The notes under the pieces were generated by a model, which had not been told where the DNA came from, ran no database searches, and saw nothing but the letters and a program-made list of their open reading frames with translations. This document shows, one piece after another, positions 761 to 11,205 of a stretch of DNA of 64,000 nt. The translations under genes were made by a program, and so were the position numbers. The stretch covers positions 17,102,283 through 17,166,282 of the forward strand of contig JAJEKV010000026.1 in assembly GCA_021234155.1 (NCBI GenBank). The letters run 5' to 3'. The stretch is from Isoetes taiwanensis (Eukaryota; Streptophyta; Lycopodiopsida; Isoetales; Isoetaceae). How positions within the stretch are numbered: the first letter of the stretch is position 1; every line of letters begins with the position of its first letter.

Positions 761-910
761 CTTATTACTGCCACGGTTTTTCCCTCGAAAACCCTTCGGG
801 GCGGGGGTTTTTTAACCCGGACAGTAATAAGTTTGTTGCGCTCCTTCTGGGTCCCATAGGCCGATTGGTCTCAGTGGACGATAAAAAAACTATTCTATTC
901 TATTCTATTC
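761..910 (+). mobile_element. 3' tail of a non-LTR retrotransposon (LINE or SINE) with (TATTC)n end
   Basis: The segment ends in an A-run followed by about four TATTC units, which abut the broken Copia gag. Just upstream an inverted repeat, CTTATTACTG (761-770) and CAGTAATAAG (822-831), encloses a C- and G-rich loop. Simple-repeat tails after an A-run are typical of plant non-LTR elements; the assignment rests on that tail and on the way it interrupts the gag frame. No ORF2 motif is visible. Confidence 0.45.
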
Positions 911-1450
911 AAAGAATTGTGGCAGGCTATTCAGAAGCATGCACACTTTCTCATCTTCTGTTACATCCATGCCCGTGGATTGCAACTCATCAAGCAGATC
1001 CTTCATTTGGCAAGTATGTTCCATGAAATCATTCCCTTCCTGCAACTGTAAGTTATACAATTTCTTACGCAGTGCAAGCCGATTCCCTGCCAAGTTTGAA
1101 GCATAATGACTCAGTAAGATCGTCCAAATCTCACATGCAGTGTTTGCATTCTTCACAAGCCGTGCTGGAACATCTTCCAGACTGGAGCAAATGATTAGTC
1201 TCGCCTTCCGATCTCTCTCAAGGATTTCTTTGATGGAGTGATCAAGTACCACTTCAACAGTGGCATTTTTAGGGACAGTGAGTGATACGGACACTGGTTC
1301 ACTCGACATTTCCAGAGCAAGATTGGGATTCTTCACAACTTCCCAAAGGTCTTTATCTTCAAGAATCATCTATATGCGCCACTTCCAGCTTTGGAAGTCC
1401 CTCCCGTTAAACCTTGGAATCATCCTCCATTCAAATGAACTCAAGGTCAT
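905..1450 (-). pseudogene. Ty1/Copia retrotransposon gag fragment (broken)
   Basis: Reading leftward from an ATG at 1450-1448, the frame gives a Copia gag N-terminus with F-N-G-R-D-F-Q-S-W, then D-L-W-E-V-V, and a UBN2-like stretch ending in L-N-S-L-P-Q-F-F-E. Gag packages the element's RNA in cytoplasmic particles. An in-frame TAG at 1372-1370 sits where CAG (Gln) would be expected, and the frame stops at 905 where a TATTC-repeat tail begins, so the rest of the polyprotein (protease, integrase, RT, RNase H) is absent. This is a dead fragment interrupted by a non-LTR insertion. The family call is firm. Confidence 0.8.
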
Positions 1451-2094
1451 GGATGCAGATAGATAAATGACAAAGGACATATAAAGGACAAGTAATAACT
1501 GAGTGTAAAGGCAATTAATGGCAAAAGCGACTGATGCGTACAAATATTAAGTTTGACGGAGTGGGCTCATAACCTATCGAACAATTGAACAAGAAATGAA
1601 CAAAGAACAATAGGAAATCAGAGAGATCAGATAACTCAGATGCTTGATTATTAGAAAAACTCAGTGGTTTTGCCTCAGAAGGCTACAACCATAAATATAT
1701 ATCGTTATCTGAATCTAATGCATGAATTGCTCCAAAGATTATAATTTAAGGAACTACTAAAAACTAATGGCATGATTCTCGCTTTAACTTGAATCATGTT
1801 TTTGACCATTCGATGATCAAAACAGTTAAAAAAAAATTTGAAGCATAGGACTCTTGGACCATATACAACTTTAACAAATATCCATATCTACTTACTTAAA
1901 ATGTTTTTAAGGGGTGGGTGTCCTCTTTTTTCTAATCGCCTGTAGACATTAGAATCTGGCAAAAATGAGAAAATTTTGTGATCAGAAAATCAAAATCCAG
2001 CATAAAAAATCTGGAAATGCAAAAATTTATGACGTTGATTTTTCCCCTTTTTACTATATTTTTCGCCTAGGGTTTGAGCCATTTCTGGATAAGG
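1451..2094. other. AT-rich spacer, no gene seen
   Basis: This could include leader or LTR remains of the Copia fragment on its left, but no paired LTR is visible. Two overlapping open stretches at 1965-2202 are short, oppositely oriented and featureless. Confidence 0.4.
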
Positions 2095-2095
2095 A

Positions 2096-2147
2096 AAAGC
2101 CTCGTTACACGACTTTCCGTGTTGGAAAGTGGGCCGAACGAGGCTTT
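2096..2147. repeat. two-stem hairpin resembling a tyrosine-recombinase crossover site
   Basis: The outer arms AAAGCCTCGTT (2096-2106) and AACGAGGCTTT (2137-2147) pair perfectly. The inner arms ACTTTCC (2112-2118) and GGAAAGT (2124-2130) also pair and flank a 5-nt GTGTT spacer. Two inverted arms around a short asymmetric spacer is the plan of Flp- and Cre-type sites. The left arm and spacer recur at 5016-5044. Confidence 0.6.
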
Positions 2148-2179
2148 GCCCTAATGTAAAGGGATGTTGGCTCGCATTC

Positions 2180-2216
2180 TGCCACGTCAGCCGATATGTC
2201 ATCTGCCACGTCAGCC
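2180..2216 (+). promoter_or_regulatory. twin bZIP-type (TGACGTGGCA) motifs upstream of the recombinase gene
   Basis: The 13-mer TGCCACGTCAGCC occurs at 2180-2192 and again at 2204-2216. Its reverse complement holds TGACGTGGCA, a hybrid G/C-box core bound by plant bZIP factors. The exact duplication about 600 bp upstream of the coding start suggests a real promoter element. Confidence 0.5.
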
Positions 2217-2845
2217 AAAAACCTTTACGAAGTTCTTGCGAATCATTTTTTCCTTCCTTTCTTTTTGCTTCTGGCTATAGCGATCGTTGCAGCGCTCGCA
2301 TGTTTCTTGAGCTTTTAGGCTCTACATGCTGCTGCATGCCATTCAGAAACACTTTTTCCTTGCAGCGCCTTCATTTTTCCTTGCAGCACCTTAATTTTCT
2401 TCATTTTCTGAAGTTTTGAAGCGGTGCCTTTATTTTTGGTAGCAGCACCTTAGTTTTATGGTGTCATGACGATTAGCGCCTTGATTCTCAGTGCTCTTGA
2501 TGGCAGTGTTCTTGATTCCCAGTGTTCTAGGTAGTTTTCATGAGTTTTAGGTTGATTTTCTTAGTATTCTCTAATTCTTACGTTGATTTTCTGGGAGTAA
2601 CATGCAGAAGGTTATGAGTCGCTTTAGGCTCTGTTATGGCTTTTATGAATATTAAGCTGTATTCTTGTATTTTTTGAGGCTTCTACCTTGGTTTCTGAAG
2701 TTCTAAAGGCAGATTCGTTCTATATTTTAGGATAAGGTAAATTAAATCGTCCAAGTTTTCTCTTTTTATAAAATATTACAGATCTAACTTGTTTACCTGT
2801 CTTTTTCAGGTTTTTGACGCTTCTTCAGTAACTTTGAAGGTTGTA

Positions 2846-4991
2846 ATGGCGTCAAATCGAGCCTTGTTGTGCTATTTAGTGTATGTACTCATTTTGTTTG
2901 AAGGTTTTGTGGTTTCTCAGTCTACTATGGCTGAGATAGATGCACCTGGCTTTATCTTGAACATCACTCAAGAGATTGGAGGTGCAGATCATTGTATTTT
3001 CTTGGATAATTCAGAATGTGAGGTTGATTTTGAGACAGAGCTTCTGAAAGAGTTTGGGGATGCCGAGATTGACGAGTACTTATGTGATGTTGAAAAGATG
3101 CCAGGGTTTTTTGGAACTGAGTCTAACAAAGAAAATGTTTCTAGTGTTGTTTCTGAAAATGTTATTGGTAATGGATCTGGAAAAGAAGTGCCTTTCCTAG
3201 AGCTTGATGATGAGTTAGTAAGGGAAGTTAATTCTGTTGGCACAAAGATAGATAAAATAGAATGGGCTCGATCCAGATTTGATCACTGGAGAGTGAAGAA
3301 AGGATTGTCAATTGAGAAAAGAATTGAGGAATTGGGTTTGATGGAGTTTGCTCGAATGTTGGAGCAGTTTATGCTTCAAGTTTGCAAGCTTAGTGGATAT
3401 CTTTACCCTACTGAAACGTAAGCACAGATTTAGTTTAGTTTTTTATTTTAGTATTTTATGTAAATACTAACTGGTTGCTACTTGTTGCAGGCTGCAAGAT
3501 ATCTAGAGAAAATTCGGAGTTATTATCAGAGGAGCACAGGAAATGAGAATAGGGCGTACTGGTATTGAGGAGATACCATTTGAGATCAAGAAGAGTCCAA
3601 TATTTGCTAATGCCAGAAAGGCATGTGTTGCTAGTATGAGAAGATCTAGATTGACTCTTGGTATTTGTGGCAAGCGTAAGAAAGTTGATGGGATACGTTA
3701 CAGCACAGAACAGGCACTTTTGTCTGATATGGACCATTCTATTTTTAGTAACAGGGGTCTTCAGAGAAGGTTTATGTACTACTATGTCTCAAGGTTTGCT
3801 ATTAGAGAGAGAGATGAGTTATGTTGTGACTGATTTTGTAGTTTTGGTAGTTGATGCTAAGGAGAGAGAATGAGCAAAAATCATCGTGTCACAATGGAGA
3901 AGTATTAGTAAGAGTCATTCAGGCAACCTGTTCGATGTTTTGAAGATGATGTTGTGCTGACATTGAAATGTCTTGTTCGACATTTACCTAAACCTGAAGA
4001 TGAAAATGCACCATGGTTCATATTCATGCAGTGCATCAATTCACCAAAATCACATGTAAGTTTATTCTGCTTTTACTTTTTGTTTTTTTTTATATTTAAT
4101 TTGCAATACTTAAACTTATCTGTTGCAGGTCTTGTACAACAAAAAGCATAGAGTGAGCGCAAAAGTGTTAGGATCTTGGATGAAATATATGTTGAAGACA
4201 ATAGGCGTTGAAGGTAAATTTTCGGGTAAATTTGGAAGAACATCAGTTGTTAGTAGGCTAGCAAGGGCGAATGTTCTCGTGGAAGTTGGAATGGATGTGA
4301 CTGGGCACAGGACTACTGGAGCATACAAGCGGTAAGTGTAGCCTTCCTTTTGGTAGCTTTAATTATTCTAGGGTTTATTCTTATATATTTGCTTTCAATT
4401 AGGTACGATAAGACTAAAGATTTGAAGTGTAAGGCTGCAATGTCGATAATTGAAAAGCCTTTCAATGACGATGGCATACACAAGATGTTTGATGAGGTAT
4501 ATGAGAGTGAGTTAAGGTCCTATGATCAACCGCAGAATACAGGTACTTTTTCTATAATGGAGGCGCCTCAGAATGTCGATTCTTCAGCAGGTTAGTAATT
4601 ATATTTTAGTGGTTATTAGATAGAAATTAGTGATAGTAATTGAATAGATCATTGTACTTGTGCAGGTAGTATGAAATTGGTTGGTAATGTTGCAATTGAA
4701 GATTCTGCTGCTGTTGAGAGTCAACCACCTGGAGCTGCTGCTGTGAATCCTATTATTCCGATACCTGTGTCTGATTTAGATGATCCTTTCTTCGACAATT
4801 TTTCCCTTGAAGAAATTGCAGGAAAAGATGTGAGATTGAGGAAGGCCTTCAACTTATCAGTGGAAGTTGGTAATACTAGCTTTTCAGGAGGAACATTTCA
4901 TAACTGTATCATTGTACCTGGAGGAAGCAACATTGATCTGTCCGAGTTTGTGAAGAATATTGTAGCTAGATCAAGTGTGAAGGAGATTTGA
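2846..4991 (+). pseudogene. Crypton/DUF3504-like tyrosine recombinase, five exon blocks, probably damaged
   Basis: Exon blocks are 2846-3417, 3491-4055, 4129-4331, 4403-4590 and 4666-4991, joined by four GT-AG introns whose phases fit. Block 1 has an acidic N-terminus and a core-binding-like helix run ending G-Y-L-Y-P-T-E-T. Block 2 carries F-A-I-R-E-R-D-E-L with the likely catalytic Arg I at 3804-3806, then a V-V-L-T-L-K-C-L-V-R-H-L-P segment. Block 3 has K-F-G-R-T-S (the His/Lys-xx-Arg box) and T-G-H-R-T-T-G-A-Y-K-R-Y, which supplies His III and the candidate Tyr. The tail is acidic and Pro-rich. Lesions: an in-frame TAG at 3504-3506, and a region at about 3830-3930 where all three frames are interrupted. 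An ATG further upstream (2789) lies in a likely 5' UTR intron end. Family call good; integrity doubtful. Confidence 0.65.
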
Positions 4992-5015
4992 AGTATTTGC
5001 AGTTTTACTTAAGGC

Positions 5016-5044
5016 AAAGGCCTCTTACACGATTTTCCATGTTG
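5016..5044 (+). repeat. right-end direct repeat of the recombinase element
   Basis: This copy matches 2095-2124 at about 24 of 29 positions, covering the left arm and the spacer but not the right arm. That half-site arrangement is expected after recombination between a circular element and a non-identical target. Confidence 0.55.
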
Positions 5045-5245
5045 TTTTTACTTTTTCAATGTAACCGAGTTGAGAACTATATGAATGGCAATCTTGAACT
5101 GATATTTTGAACTGTGATTTTACTGTGTCATTCTTGAATTTTTACTAACCTTTCAATTTTTTTTACTAACCATTCTGCAAATTTTACTCTTCATTTTCAA
5201 AACTTTTACTAGCCAATTCTCTTACCTTTAGTATACTTTCAGGAT

Positions 5246-5465
5246 AAGGTTCTAAAAAGAATAATAACTTCCAAAAAAAAAAAAAAGTTTAATGTAATTC
5301 TCAATAAAAGGTTAGAATATATCCGCCACGCATTATCATAAGAAGATTAGCCTACTTTTATTTTGGACTTTTGCGTTTTAATGAAAATAAAATGAGCCAA
5401 CATTCCTTTTGCGAAAAAGTAGTAACATGCTTTTACAAAGGTTCTAAAAAATAATAATAACTTCC
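5246..5465 (+). repeat. two direct copies of a ~27-bp AT-rich motif
   Basis: AAGGTTCTAAAAA followed by AATAATAACTTCC occurs at 5246-5272 and again at 5438-5465, each followed by a related ATTATCATA segment. It looks like a diverged local duplication with no coding content. Confidence 0.5.
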
Positions 5466-5818
5466 TCATTATCATAGCGTTAGAATAATTCATTTTTATG
5501 GAAAAACATTCCTTTACTAAAAAAGTAGGAGGCTAGATTTGATACATGGTAATTCATTTTATGGAAAACGACGATTTTAGGTCGCTGCACCGGAGAAGTA
5601 AAAGGCATGGATCCGTTTTAGAAACAATCGGAGGAGGTGCCAGCACATGATTAATCTATTTTGCAAAGGCTGTGCAGGCGCCAAAGCATCGGACATAGAC
5701 CGAATTTGAAGGAAAACAGGAATTGATTTTTGCATTGAATCTGGTTATTGAAAGCTTCTTTCATCGAATTCTTGCAACTAAGCTTTATCTTAAAGATTCA
5801 AAGGGCTGAAGTTAAAAG

Positions 5819-6068: not shown

Positions 6069-8460
6069 GCATAAAAAGGTACATAAAATGTCATATTATC
6101 ATTTTGATATGCTAAAGCATCCAATGATTGAAAATTCTAGATTATCATCATTTGGGAAACTATTATTGTAGCAAATTCTTTGTTTTTTACGAAGTCCATA
6201 AGCATTAAAGTTTTTCCTAGGGTTCAGAGTTCAATTTCCTCATGTGGCTTTTTCTAGAGAACCACCAATGGTCTAGAAAATTGGACCCCTAACTGGCTAC
6301 AGGAGAGCAATATTTCTGGTTGCACTATCTGCACTATAACTGTAGGAAGTTTGACCAGTGCCAATTTGTTAATTGGAGGGCATAGAGAAGCCAAGTTTTG
6401 TTATAATCCAGTTATGGCACAGTCTGAGTAAATCAAGTCTGGCTATGACAATTTGAGAGTTCTTAATGCATCTCAACTAAGAGCTCAATCTTGCTTTCAT
6501 TGATTGTCCATATCCAGATTTCCATATGTAGTGGTGCATTTGTAATTGACAAGAGAGACTTTGGCAGCTGTTATGTAATACAAGTTCTTATATCCTGAAT
6601 TTGGATGAAAAGATGTCTGGTTGTTGGGTAAATACTATTTCATTACAGTTCCATGTTTTTGCATGTTTTACTACATTGATTGATATATATATGAATAAGA
6701 CGACATTTTAATATTATGATAATAATTATGATGGCATTCAATTTGATTGTACTCTTGATAACAGAGAACATGGGCATAACACTAGCAACGTTATAAATTG
6801 TCTTTTGTTTGATTTTGTCAAAATCCATCCAAGTTACAGTTAACAAATTCCATCCCTTATCAAGTACTTTGTGAAATTCTTGCTGGATACATTCTCGGAG
6901 TGCATGCATAAGGTTGGCAAATTATCTCTCACTATGATTTTATTAATGATTTGGTAGAAAATAGGGGTTAGGGTTTTGGTAAAAAAAAATTGGACCTTGG
7001 CTAACTGCAAAGACTGAGTTGATGTCAACTTCAGCTACATGAGCAGTGGCGCTATACATCGCCTGATTAATGAAGTGGCCATAATGCTGATGTAAATGGG
7101 TTTAACAAACAGATGTGCAAACACCTCTATGATTAGGAAAATTGTCTTGGAGTGAAGAGTGAAACTGTAGGTTGCAATTGGGAGTTATGTGTGTATTTAT
7201 AGGAAGAACCCAATTTTTTTTGAATTTTTTAGGTTTTGGAAGTGTCTATCATTTTGAGATCTAACTAGATATTGGGGTGAAAGCATGTTGTAGTGGAACA
7301 CCCTGGGTGTCACCCCTGTCCTCCTAAAAATGTGGTGGGAGATATCAAATTTGTGGTGCGATTTTAAATGTTTGTTTGGCGCCTAGTGATGTAATTTGCC
7401 TTGATTCAATCATTTCCTCAACCGCAACAACCCGATTCCCTACGCCACCCGCCCCATTCCAATTTCCCGCCACCCGTCCCATTCCAATCTCCACCGAACC
7501 GATTTCTAAACCCACGACCCACCCACCCGCCTTTCCTGAAGCACACGGCTATGGTGCTTAATCCGGTTGGGATCAATCCGTTCATACCTTCAATCATTTA
7601 ATTTGGAAGCAAATCTGCCACGAGATAAGAGAAAGAGAACTCCGTAACAAGAACGGGATCATAAAAGACGCCAAAGGAAAAGACAAAGGGAAGCTAAAGA
7701 AGAATTAGCAAAAATTGCAACAAAATAGAGGGAGGATCCACTGAACGGCCTCTACCAGCGCCGGATGGTATTAAAATTGTTATCTTCATTTCATAGCACC
7801 ACTAAAGGCTTGTCTAACAAATGATAAGAAAGAGGTTTTACTAGATTATCTCGGCAGGATGACACAATGGACAAATGCATTTTGGCGAAAGAGTCAAAGA
7901 TTTGCAAGCCAAGAGCATTGTGGTCGTCCAACCCCCTCGTGGCTTCCATTCAACTTGTGAAGAAGTCTAAGAGCAATGACAGCTTTAGCGCCAAAGAGTA
8001 GTTGCCTTGCTATGGCCGTAAGAGGAAGCATTAATACCGAAAGTGCTAATCCCCGGTGCTGCTCGGGGTTTTGGTAAACCGGGGGTGTTCATCCTAGGAA
8101 TCTTACCAAAGCAAAATTGAAGAGGGAAGAGATAGATTGCAAAGGGGGAAATGGGTTTTGTACAAAAGAGTTAGAAGAGCGGTGTCATAGAACTTGTGCA
8201 AAGAATTTTGGACCGAAAAAAAGAGGGTCTCTCCAAATGCAAAGGATGTTAAGTTCGTAAGATTGGAACGAAATGTAAGAGAGGATCATGCCACTCACTA
8301 TCCGGAAGAATCACGGTGTTATTTCATTTCTTCATCTTCACCACATTTTTATTGTTAATGTGGTATGTGGTTAGTGATTGCTTGTGATATGTGGTTGCTT
8401 TGGGTTAGTGATTGCTTGTGGTGTGTGGTGCCTATTAATCTTTGTGATATATGATATGTG
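6069..8460. other. no supported gene; AT-rich with a Pro-rich open stretch
   Basis: Two overlapping frames at 7376-7601 are rich in Pro and Thr because of a C-rich patch; neither shows a domain. A purine-rich tract follows to about 8000. Nothing here supports a gene. Confidence 0.4.
7275..7362 (+). repeat. dispersed repeat, inverted partner near 19.9-20.04 kb
   Basis: GGGTGAAAGCATGTTGTAGT at 7275-7294, plus a following TGTGGTGGGA segment, reappears as the reverse complement at about 19928-20040 with the order of sub-blocks preserved. The intervening 12.7 kb holds the TGTGGTG/CACCACA-type arrays. Confidence 0.5.
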
Positions 8461-8890
8461 TTTGCCTAGTGTGGTGAGGCACGTGGTGTGAAATAAATGC
8501 CGTCAATATATGCTTTGTGGTGCCTAGTGTGGTGAATAACATGGTGTAAAATACATCTTTAATATATGCTATGTGGTGCCTAGTGTGGTGAAAAAATATG
8601 GTGTAAAATAAATGCTCTAAATATACGCTTTGTGGTGCCTAGTGTGGTGAATAACATGGTGTAAAATAAATGTTTGTAATATATGCTATGTGGTCCCTAG
8701 TGTGGTGAATAACATGGTGTGGTGTCTAGTGTGGTGTCTAGTGTGGTGCCGTGGTGGTGCCTAGTGTGGTGCCTAGTGTGGTTAAAAAACATGGTGTAAA
8801 ATAAATGTTTGAATATATTCTATGTGGTGCCTAGTGTGGTGAATAACGAGGTGTAAGATGAATGTCCAGTAATATATGCTATGTTTAATA
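8461..8890 (+). repeat. ~60-bp minisatellite, about seven diverged units
   Basis: Units contain TGCCTAGTGTGGTGAATAAC, then ATGGTGTAAAATAAATG, then AATATATGCTATG. A shorter expansion of the GTGTCTAGTGTGGTG part lies at about 8720-8785. The array is non-coding. Confidence 0.85.
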
Positions 8891-10371: not shown

Positions 10372-11205
10372 TTGAATTGGCCATTCATGAATAGCTCCAA
10401 CATGCCACCTACGATGCACCACATGATTCACCAAGGTCATGTAAAGGCTCAAGCATGCCAAGGTAGCTCAAATATGCCACCTAGGCTCCAACATGCCAAG
10501 GTGGCTCAAACATGCCACGTAAGCTCCAACATGCCACCTACGATGCACCACATGATTCACCACATGATTCACCAAATGCACCTCATGATTCACCACATGC
10601 ACCATTTGCATCACCAAACATGTTGGTCAATGAAAGTCAAACATGTAACAAAGGTCATGTAAAGGCTCAAGCATGCCAAGGTGGCTCAAATATGCCACCT
10701 AGGCTCCAACATGCCAAGGTGGCTCAAACATGCCACGTGAAGCTCCAACATGCCACCCACGATGCACCACATGATTCACCACATGATTCACCAAATGCAC
10801 CTCATGATTCACCACATGCACCATTTGCATCACCAAACATGTTGGTCAATGAAAGTCAAACATGTAACAAAGGTCATGTAAAGGCTCAAGCATGCCAAGG
10901 TGGCTCAAATATGCCACCTAGGGCTCCAACATGCCAAGGTGGCTCAAACATGCCACATAAGCTCCAACATGCCACCTACGATGCACCACATGATTCACCA
11001 CATGATTCACCAAATACACCTCATGATTCACCACATGCACCATTTGCATCACCAAACATGTTGGTCAATGAAAGTCAAACATGCCACGTAAGCTCCAACA
11101 TGCCACCTACGATTCACCACATGATTCACCACATGGTTCACCAAATGCACCACATGATTCACCACATGCACCATTTGCATCACCACATCTATCACGACAT
11201 GTAAC
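10372..11205 (+). repeat. ~219-bp satellite array, about 3.5 units
   Basis: The unit start CATGCCACGT or a close variant falls at 10511, 10729 and 10949 (periods 218 and 220), with a truncated unit from 11080. Each unit is built from the shorter words CACATGATTCACCA, CCAACATGCCA and CATGTTGGTCAATG. All forward frames lack stops across the array, so the 230-codon open frame at 10512-11204 is a by-product of repetition. Confidence 0.9.

What the first reader, a model, noticed from the sequence alone, without database searches (positions are those of the whole stretch)
2095..5044. Crypton-like tyrosine recombinase element in a plant nuclear genome
Seen: a single multi-exon gene with F-A-I-R-E-R, K-F-G-R-T-S and T-G-H-R..Y-K-R-Y boxes, enclosed by ~29-bp direct repeats. 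Known: Cryptons are intron-bearing YR DNA transposons best described in fungi, oomycetes and animals, and DUF3504 is their domesticated domain; I know of no well-characterised land-plant family. Inference: this is a plant Crypton lineage, or a horizontally acquired one. The His of HxxR is Lys, which the YR family tolerates.
Basis: partly seen in the sequence, partly recalled or inferred. Interest (0 to 1): 0.85.

Follow-up and report, generated by a model that had tools for sequence, protein, structure and literature searches.

The report
Plant recombinase transposon with hairpin end
A land-plant genome, apparently a quillwort, carries a multi-copy jumping gene that seems to move with a tyrosine recombinase, joins its target at a single base, and has a long DNA hairpin at one end, so that copies can line up head to tail rather like bacterial integron cassettes.

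Summary
The window holds one decayed copy (2087-5412) of a repeated family in a 1.66-Gb plant genome whose size and sequence count fit Isoetes taiwanensis. Sister copy L005 has an open five-exon, 621-aa frame for a likely tyrosine recombinase (R, K, KxxR, GH, Y in order; Pfam scores below cut-off). The second "direct repeat" is an internal half-arm behind the stop codon, not an end. Fuller copies begin with GGATAAGGG and a ~45-bp-arm imperfect palindrome and end with CCAACATTCCTTTACG. Paralogous empty sites show insertion after TTHY with one shared G and no target-site duplication. Palindrome arms co-vary between copies while an unpaired G and a GA/GA mismatch stay. Some copies and short non-autonomous relatives sit head to tail, a left end starting exactly at the previous right end. 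It works like a Crypton but fails two stated Crypton features (no inverted repeats; 4-6-bp direct repeats), so I file it as a new variant. Most novel reading not excluded: recombination through a folded hairpin, as at integron attC sites. Horizontal transfer has no support here.

The parts
2087..5412 (+). Whole element (decayed copy). 2087 is the G shared with the target; the same G can be counted at 5413
   Evidence: Left and right ends aligned with other copies; empty relative L073 joins the flanks here
2087..2153 (+). Remnant of the left terminal palindrome: outer arm 2087-2136, remnant of inner arm 2137-2153; most of the inner arm and part of the tip are deleted in this copy
   Evidence: Alignment A1 with 31 other left ends
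2154..2184 (+). Inner inverted repeat (TAAAGGGATGTTGGCTCGC...), complementary to the right end
   Evidence: Sequence; inverted match to right ends of L014, L015, L016, L020; window pattern hit 2155-2170 on the minus strand
2846..3417 (+). Coding exon 1 (putative start ATG 2846)
   Evidence: ORF 2741-3421; splice site; same structure in L005
3491..4055 (+). Coding exon 2 with the RFAIRERDEL box; stop at 3504-3506 and a frame break before 3912 in this copy
4129..4331 (+). Coding exon 3: KxxR (KFGRTS) and TGHR
   Evidence: catalytic mapping
4403..4590 (+). Coding exon 4; its first full codon (4404-4406, TAC) is the putative nucleophile Tyr (Y236 of alignment A2)
4666..4991 (+). Coding exon 5, ends with TGA
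5010..5044 (+).
5394..5412 (+). Right end (GAGCCAACATTCCTTTTGC here; CCAACATTCCTTTACG in most other copies)
   Evidence: right-flank order agrees with empty relative L073

Best explanation
It is a decayed autonomous copy of a DNA transposon family that moves with its own tyrosine recombinase (YR). Shown by sequence: one five-exon gene whose product carries the YR residues (R in IRGRDEL, K in SKN, KxxR, GH, Y); unit-length copies with fixed ends; insertion after TTHY with one shared G and no target-site duplication; a long imperfect palindrome at the left end; short non-autonomous relatives with the same kind of ends; head-to-tail placement of some copies exactly at the right end of others. Inferred: the element leaves as a circle (or is copied out) whose junction is ...CCTTTAC-G-GATAAGGG...; in that junction the right end and the inner repeat lengthen the palindrome into one stem of about 70 bp with unpaired bases next to the crossover; the recombinase joins this site to TTHYG in the target at the G. 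Because the right end keeps TTTACG, it is itself a good target, which would explain the arrays. Whether the site is used as duplex or as folded single strand is open.
For: Repeated family: 84 matching stretches, a lower bound. Open 621-aa gene in L005, the one copy I spliced in full. YR assignment: Pfam DUF3504 E 6.6e-4 and Phage_integrase E 0.0089 on the catalytic region, and Phage_integrase E 0.0023 on a piece of the divergent second family; profile A2 finds only two PDB sequences at E up to 10, both tyrosine recombinases (3nkh, E 8.2e-4; IntI4, 2a3v, E 0.81), aligned over KxxR/HxxR, GH and Y. Empty sites: L007 against L061-L063, L004 against L064, L042 against L072 (one extra G, both 60-base flanks aligned); weaker, L021 against L074 and the window against L073; L005 against its own tandem flank, by eye. 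Target bias: T 26 of 32 at -4, T 25 of 32 at -3, Y 30 of 32 at -1. Palindrome: 131 cells changed on both sides against a shuffled mean of 42.2, slid versions 7-34; unpaired G in 30 of 32 rows, GA/GA in 27 of 32. Joined ends fold into one stem in 6 of 6 copies tried. Head-to-tail units: L087, L006-L084, L090.
Against: Both Pfam scores are under their curated cut-offs (20.2 of 29.7 and 16.2 of 27.1 bits), so the YR assignment rests on position and residues as much as on score. Circles, transcripts and activity could not be looked for. Of 16 flank pairs searched, seven gave nothing spanning the join, two (L022, L030) cross it by only a few bases and one (L054) is ambiguous; but at most 40 of up to 1590 candidates were scored per search. 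Two of the five co-variation measures do not exceed the shuffles (pairs with a double change 17 against 15.4, 124 of 500 shuffles as high; further pair types 46 against 46.4, 335 of 500). The pattern count for right-left joins (23) is not far above its reversed-pattern control (15). Palindrome arms can be kept alike by arm-to-arm copying: units 590 and 2369 of L087 have an outer arm of the inner type, so co-variation need not mean selection for pairing.
Confidence: 0.8

Rival explanations
1. Within the YR reading, the ordinary Crypton mechanism: a double-stranded circle recombines with a short matching core (TTHYG with TTTACG) by two staggered strand exchanges; the palindrome is only a protein-binding or regulatory feature.
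For: TTHYG on the left and TTTACG on the right are imperfect terminal direct repeats of about 5 bp; Cryptons have short direct repeats (passages of PMC3212892). By eye the joined end CATTCCTT-TACGGAT-AAGGGAA looks like two inverted arms around 7 bp.
Against: A staggered exchange over a 5-7-bp core should mix target and element letters on both sides over time. Instead right ends keep TTTACG (23 of 32 kept rows read CCTTTACG exactly, the other nine differ by one or a few letters) while left flanks vary, as if the crossover were at one base.
Confidence: 0.45
2. The hairpin elements are moved by a DDE or rolling-circle enzyme supplied in trans, and the YR gene is a passenger.
For: Inverted repeats and many short non-autonomous copies are usual for DDE transposons; insertion next to a fixed base with no duplication recalls Helitrons and IS91-like elements (recalled).
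Against: No duplication beyond one base in the empty sites aligned. Pfam returned only DUF3504 and Phage_integrase for the L005 protein. Two divergent YR families (L006 and L084) have, by eye, the same layout of hairpin, gene and inverted right part, though the last bases of L084 are lost. Ends are not TC...CTRR.
Confidence: 0.08
3. A domesticated YR-derived gene family spread by segmental duplication.
For: Some copies share flanks (L021 and L025, L015 and L016, L014 and L058).
Against: Of the 21 flank pairs listed only L021 and L025 look alike; ends are sharp and empty sites exist; many copies have broken frames.
Confidence: 0.03
4. The copies are contamination or recent foreign DNA.
For: YR elements are best known outside plants (section of PMC3212892).
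Against: Copies lie on many contigs, several of tens of megabases, have short GT-AG introns and several sit inside repeats of the same genome. No relative in GTDB genomes or IMG/VR (close relatives only).
Confidence: 0.04

Closest known systems
Crypton DNA transposons (CryptonA, F, I, S, V)
   Same: YR-only DNA transposon; DUF3504-like catalytic region (weak match); no target-site duplication beyond a shared core; imperfect ~5-bp direct repeats TTHYG/TTTACG
   Different: Long terminal palindrome and inverted right end; only 1 exact shared base; many short non-autonomous relatives; head-to-tail units; land-plant host
Bacterial integrons (IntI with attC sites and cassette arrays)
   Same: YR; site is an imperfect palindrome whose arms vary between units while imperfections stay (unpaired bases at the predicted crossover, an extra unpaired base, variable tip); head-to-tail units; apparent single-base crossover
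   Different: The element carries its own recombinase gene inside the mobile unit; many scattered TTHYG targets; eukaryotic gene with introns; strand use unknown; the very weak match to IntI4 (E 0.81) is no evidence of kinship
DUF3504 genes (ZMYM2-4, QRICH1, KIAA1958, KCTD1)
   Same: Same catalytic-domain family by weak profile match
   Different: Those are domesticated and lack most catalytic residues (abstract of PMC3212892); here the residues are present
Other DUF3504-type YR genes in the same genome (L081, L082)
   Same: L082 shares R, KN, WY, KxxR, TGH, YD with L005; DNA-level DUF3504 hits of both loci are over the cut-off, with stops inside
   Different: L082 pieces are 26% identical to L005 over the catalytic region and score just below both Pfam cut-offs when typed as joined pieces (26.9 of 27.1 and 24.9 of 29.7); their ends were not studied

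Membership tests
Crypton | A tyrosine recombinase is the element's only enzyme | tested here: met
   L005 621 aa: Pfam lists only DUF3504 and Phage_integrase, both under cut-off; residues R, K, KxxR, GH, Y invariant in A2 (3 sequences); the two PDB profile hits are YRs
Crypton | Falls in a Crypton clade of the YR tree | not tested
   No Crypton protein sequences were at hand; DUF3504 match E 6.6e-4, 20.2 bits, cut-off 29.7
Crypton | 4-6-bp terminal direct repeats | tested here: not met
   Empty sites show one shared G; the left TTHYG only resembles the right TTTACG
Crypton | No terminal inverted repeats | tested here: not met
   Right end is complementary to the repeat inside the left palindrome
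Crypton | Excised circle intermediate | not testable with these tools
   No reads; junction only modelled
Integron attC system | Sites are imperfect palindromes with conserved imperfections and variable sequence | tested here: met
   attC features read in passages of PMC8946536
Integron attC system | Head-to-tail arrays of units | tested here: met
   L087 array, L006-L084, L090; few cases, most copies read here are single
Integron attC system | One folded strand is recombined and resolved by replication | not testable with these tools
   Only indirect: fixed single-base crossover
Integron attC system | Integrase gene outside the cassettes at a fixed attI platform (recalled in this form) | tested here: not met
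   The YR gene lies between the ends of the mobile unit; targets are scattered
DIRS/Ngaro retrotransposons | Reverse transcriptase | tested here: not met
   No such domain in the L005 protein or the window exons
TIR (DDE) transposon | Target-site duplication of 2 bp or more (recalled) | tested here: not met
Helitron | 5' TC ... CTRR 3' ends and insertion into AT | tested here: not met
   Ends GGATAAGGG ... CCTTTACG, target TTHY-G; end rules read in passages of PMC7385966

The most novel reading that the evidence does not exclude
A eukaryotic YR transposon that recombines through a folded single-stranded hairpin site, as integron attC sites do: one strand is exchanged at a single base, replication resolves the product, the fixed unpaired G and mismatches choose the strand, and non-autonomous units pile up as cassette-like arrays. 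This would be an integron-like mechanism in a plant nucleus, reached either by convergence or from a shared YR ability.
Probability: 0.3. Interest if true: 0.92.

Novelty: new variant of a known kind. Interest (0 to 1): 0.74.

Why it matters
YR-only transposons are listed from fungi, animals and stramenopiles (PMC3212892). A repeated set with at least two YR families in a land plant, with near-exact empty sites, lets their ends, target and crossover be read directly, which has been hard because Crypton boundaries are difficult to characterise (PMC3212892). The palindromic site with fixed imperfections and the head-to-tail units make a testable link between eukaryotic YR transposition and integron-type hairpin recombination, and suggest that short hairpin repeats in quillwort genomes may be YR-moved.

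Tried and rejected

Counting right-left joins by pattern alone: 23 hits against 15 for the reversed pattern; not used as evidence. Only loci read with an element on both sides of the join were counted. L083/L055, L088, L089, L091 and L092 look like further cases, but an upstream element with both ends was not verified in them.

Concerted change of the internal half-arm with the left arm: not general. Of 11 copies with both, the internal copy is closest to the copy's own arm in one (L003); outside L003, L005 and L007 it is much the same sequence whatever the arm. Five of the 20 rows printed (L008, L009, L011, L024, L025) are left arms, not internal copies.

right-end table: of 35 rows, WIN is a wrong position (a later small insertion), L055 is the end of an upstream unit, and L017 is unverified; leaving these out, T at +1 is 23 of 32 (one search tested 23 of 35). 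In the same call I left out before counting copies with shared flanks (L025, L052, L053 on the left; L025, L058, L016 on the right) and right ends cut off by the fetched piece.

Arm comparison used 29 of 32 rows (arms of at least 24 letters); own right arm was the best or tied match in 17 of 29.

First exon-level Pfam scan of the window copy found nothing relevant. In one search the exon-2 piece of the second family matched no YR model. PDB search with the single sequence found no YR.

Relatives in IMG/VR and GTDB genomes: none. Papers: the rows listed by searches (in most only part of the hits) show no land-plant Crypton study and no YR transposon with a hairpin site; open-licence papers only.
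Full report
What is in the window. The gene and its four GT-AG introns are there, but this copy is broken: exon 2 has a stop at 3504-3506 and a frame break before 3912. A genome search with the stretch returned 84 matching stretches, several per copy, among them 13 others of 1.8-2.8 kb at 81-92% identity. The genome is 1,658,258,908 bases in 1110 contigs; the Isoetes taiwanensis paper gives 1658.30 Mb in 204 scaffolds and 909 contigs (PMC8566536, passages), so the host is very likely that quillwort. This is inference; the tool names no organism.

Ends. Twenty loci with copies were fetched first. Several match the window beyond 5044, to about 5300, and outer ends line up to the base. The left end is GGATAAGGG and the right end is CCAACATTCCTTTACG. 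In the window these are 2087 and 5412, a unit of 3.3 kb.

Empty sites. I searched the genome with the joined flanks of 16 insertions (at most 40 candidates scored per search) and aligned what spanned the join. L007: CAGTTT-G-ATATAAG in L061, L062 and L063, identical to the 120 joined flank bases except for one G. L004: one extra G in L064. L042, a short copy: one extra G in L072, 98% over 121 columns. L021: an extra G in L074 but A in L075, with only 10-11 bases past the join. L020: L065 has GA and L066 G, at lower identity. The window: L073 joins at 2086/5413, and blocks of the right flank follow in the same order. L005, not among the 16, carries by eye a tandem duplicate of its target in its left flank, which again gives one shared G. 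L054 is ambiguous; L022 and L030 cross the join by only a few bases; L003, L018, L023, L024, L026, L029 and L039 gave nothing spanning the join. So, where it can be read, insertion is precise, without target-site duplication, and one G is shared. Left flanks are biased: T 26 of 32 at -4, T 25 of 32 at -3, pyrimidine 30 of 32 at -1, no G at -2 or -1 in 32 of 32. The target is TTHY-G, which resembles the element's own right end TTTAC-G. Of 35 right-end rows I keep 32 (three are misplaced or unverified); 23 of these read CCTTTACG exactly.

Gene and protein. L005 splices to an open frame of 621 aa; it is the only copy I spliced in full. The whole protein matches DUF3504 at E 0.0039 and Phage_integrase at E 0.042; the catalytic region alone matches DUF3504 (E 6.6e-4, 20.2 bits, cut-off 29.7) and Phage_integrase (E 0.0089, 16.2 bits, cut-off 27.1), all below the curated cut-offs. 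A second, divergent family in L084 (69% identical in the catalytic region) matches Phage_integrase at E 0.0023 in one piece and no YR model in another. Two further loci, L081 and L082, have DUF3504 matches over the cut-off when searched as DNA, with stops inside; typed as joined pieces L082 scores just under both cut-offs. Aligned, L005, L084 and L082 share R76, K108, K201..R204, H227 and Y236. A profile of the three finds two PDB sequences at E up to 10, both tyrosine recombinases, with K201 opposite the His of HxxR. Unlike the domesticated DUF3504 genes (abstract of PMC3212892), the catalytic residues are kept.

The palindrome. Fuller copies begin with a palindrome of about 45-bp arms; several have lost part of the tip. 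In an alignment of 32 left ends, 92.3% of cells pair, against 83.0% after shuffling and 34-50% when slid; 131 cells changed on both sides, against 42.2. Two other measures do not exceed the shuffles: pairs with a double change (17 against 15.4) and further pair types (46 against 46.4). Against this change two imperfections stay: an unpaired G in 30 of 32 rows and GA opposite GA in 27 of 32. The inner side of the palindrome is followed by the complement of the right end. If the two ends are joined, as in a circle, the stem runs on through the right end in 6 of 6 copies tried, with unpaired bases next to the shared G: four against two in L018, L005, L022 and L021, fewer or split in L006 and L042. 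Arms can also be rewritten from each other: two related units of the L087 array have both arms of the inner type, and L015/L016 carry, by eye, the tip inverted. Co-variation alone is therefore not proof of selection for pairing; the persistence of the imperfections is the better argument.

Short relatives and arrays. Units of about 345 bp with the same kind of ends are common (189 first-look candidates, 40 scored). On contig C908 units stand head to tail, right end directly followed by left end, with at least four different joins and a fifth whose left end is doubtful; a block of about 1.5 kb is present three times at 91-95% identity. In L006-L084 a family-1 element with its right end is followed at once by a family-2 YR element, whose own last bases at the right are lost. 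In L090 one 335-bp unit is followed at once by another left end. This is what one expects if TTTACG at a right end is itself a good target. A pattern search for such joins gave 23 hits against 15 for the reversed pattern, so counts of the pattern alone prove nothing.

Mechanism. The YR would join the element's CCTTTAC-G-GATAAGGG junction to TTHY-G in the target. The ordinary scheme, two staggered exchanges over a 5-7-bp core, should let target letters leak into the ends. They hardly do: right ends keep TTTACG and left ends keep GATAAG while flanks vary. Either resolution is strongly biased, or only one strand is exchanged at one base. The second is how integron cassettes enter (passages of PMC8946536), and the site has the same kind of parts: imperfect palindrome, unpaired bases at the crossover, an extra unpaired base, variable tip. 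This is an analogy of form, not proof; strand use was not tested.

Compared with the known. It works like a Crypton, but has inverted termini and lacks exact 4-6-bp direct repeats, two features given for Cryptons in PMC3212892 (passages). I therefore do not file it as a member, but as a new variant of the YR-only transposons. The Crypton table of that paper names no land plant (section read). A review of Arabidopsis elements says Cryptons are not described there (passage), and a review of land-plant elements does not contain the word in its main text (term count). PMC4438587 lists Crypton among superfamilies in all groups studied, including land plants, without detail in the passages I read, and one tree genome table has 66 bp labelled Crypton-V (passage). 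So I claim the structure as new, not the first use of the word for a plant.

Noticed in passing
window 905-1369 (-): Fragment of a copia-type gag gene (Pfam Retrotran_gag_2, E 1.8e-26) next to the element.
   Followed up: partly
window 8442-8782 and 10433-11083: Satellite-like tandem repeats (58/115-bp and 12-bp units; 219-bp units).
   Followed up: no
window about 750-880: Stretch that by eye matches the left flank of L044 in reverse, probably a dispersed short repeat; not tested.
   Followed up: no
window about 5489-5530: Small extra insertion in the right flank, by eye absent from the empty relative L073, that contains AACATTCCTTTACT, like a right end.
   Followed up: partly
L087 (C908:3744600-3753900): Head-to-tail array of hairpin units whose ~1.5-kb block is present three times at 91-95% identity.
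   Followed up: partly
L081 and L082 (C31, C606): A second group of DUF3504-type recombinase genes in the same genome, apparently with introns and decayed, over the Pfam cut-off; ends not studied.
   Followed up: partly
L015, L016: By eye the tip of the palindrome is inverted in this shared insertion, a flip of the hairpin.
   Followed up: no
L092: Two left-end hairpins 114 bp apart, with the flank before them duplicated as well; origin unclear.
   Followed up: no
L018, L020: Internal-deletion derivatives of about 1.4 kb that keep both ends and the internal half-arm.
   Followed up: no
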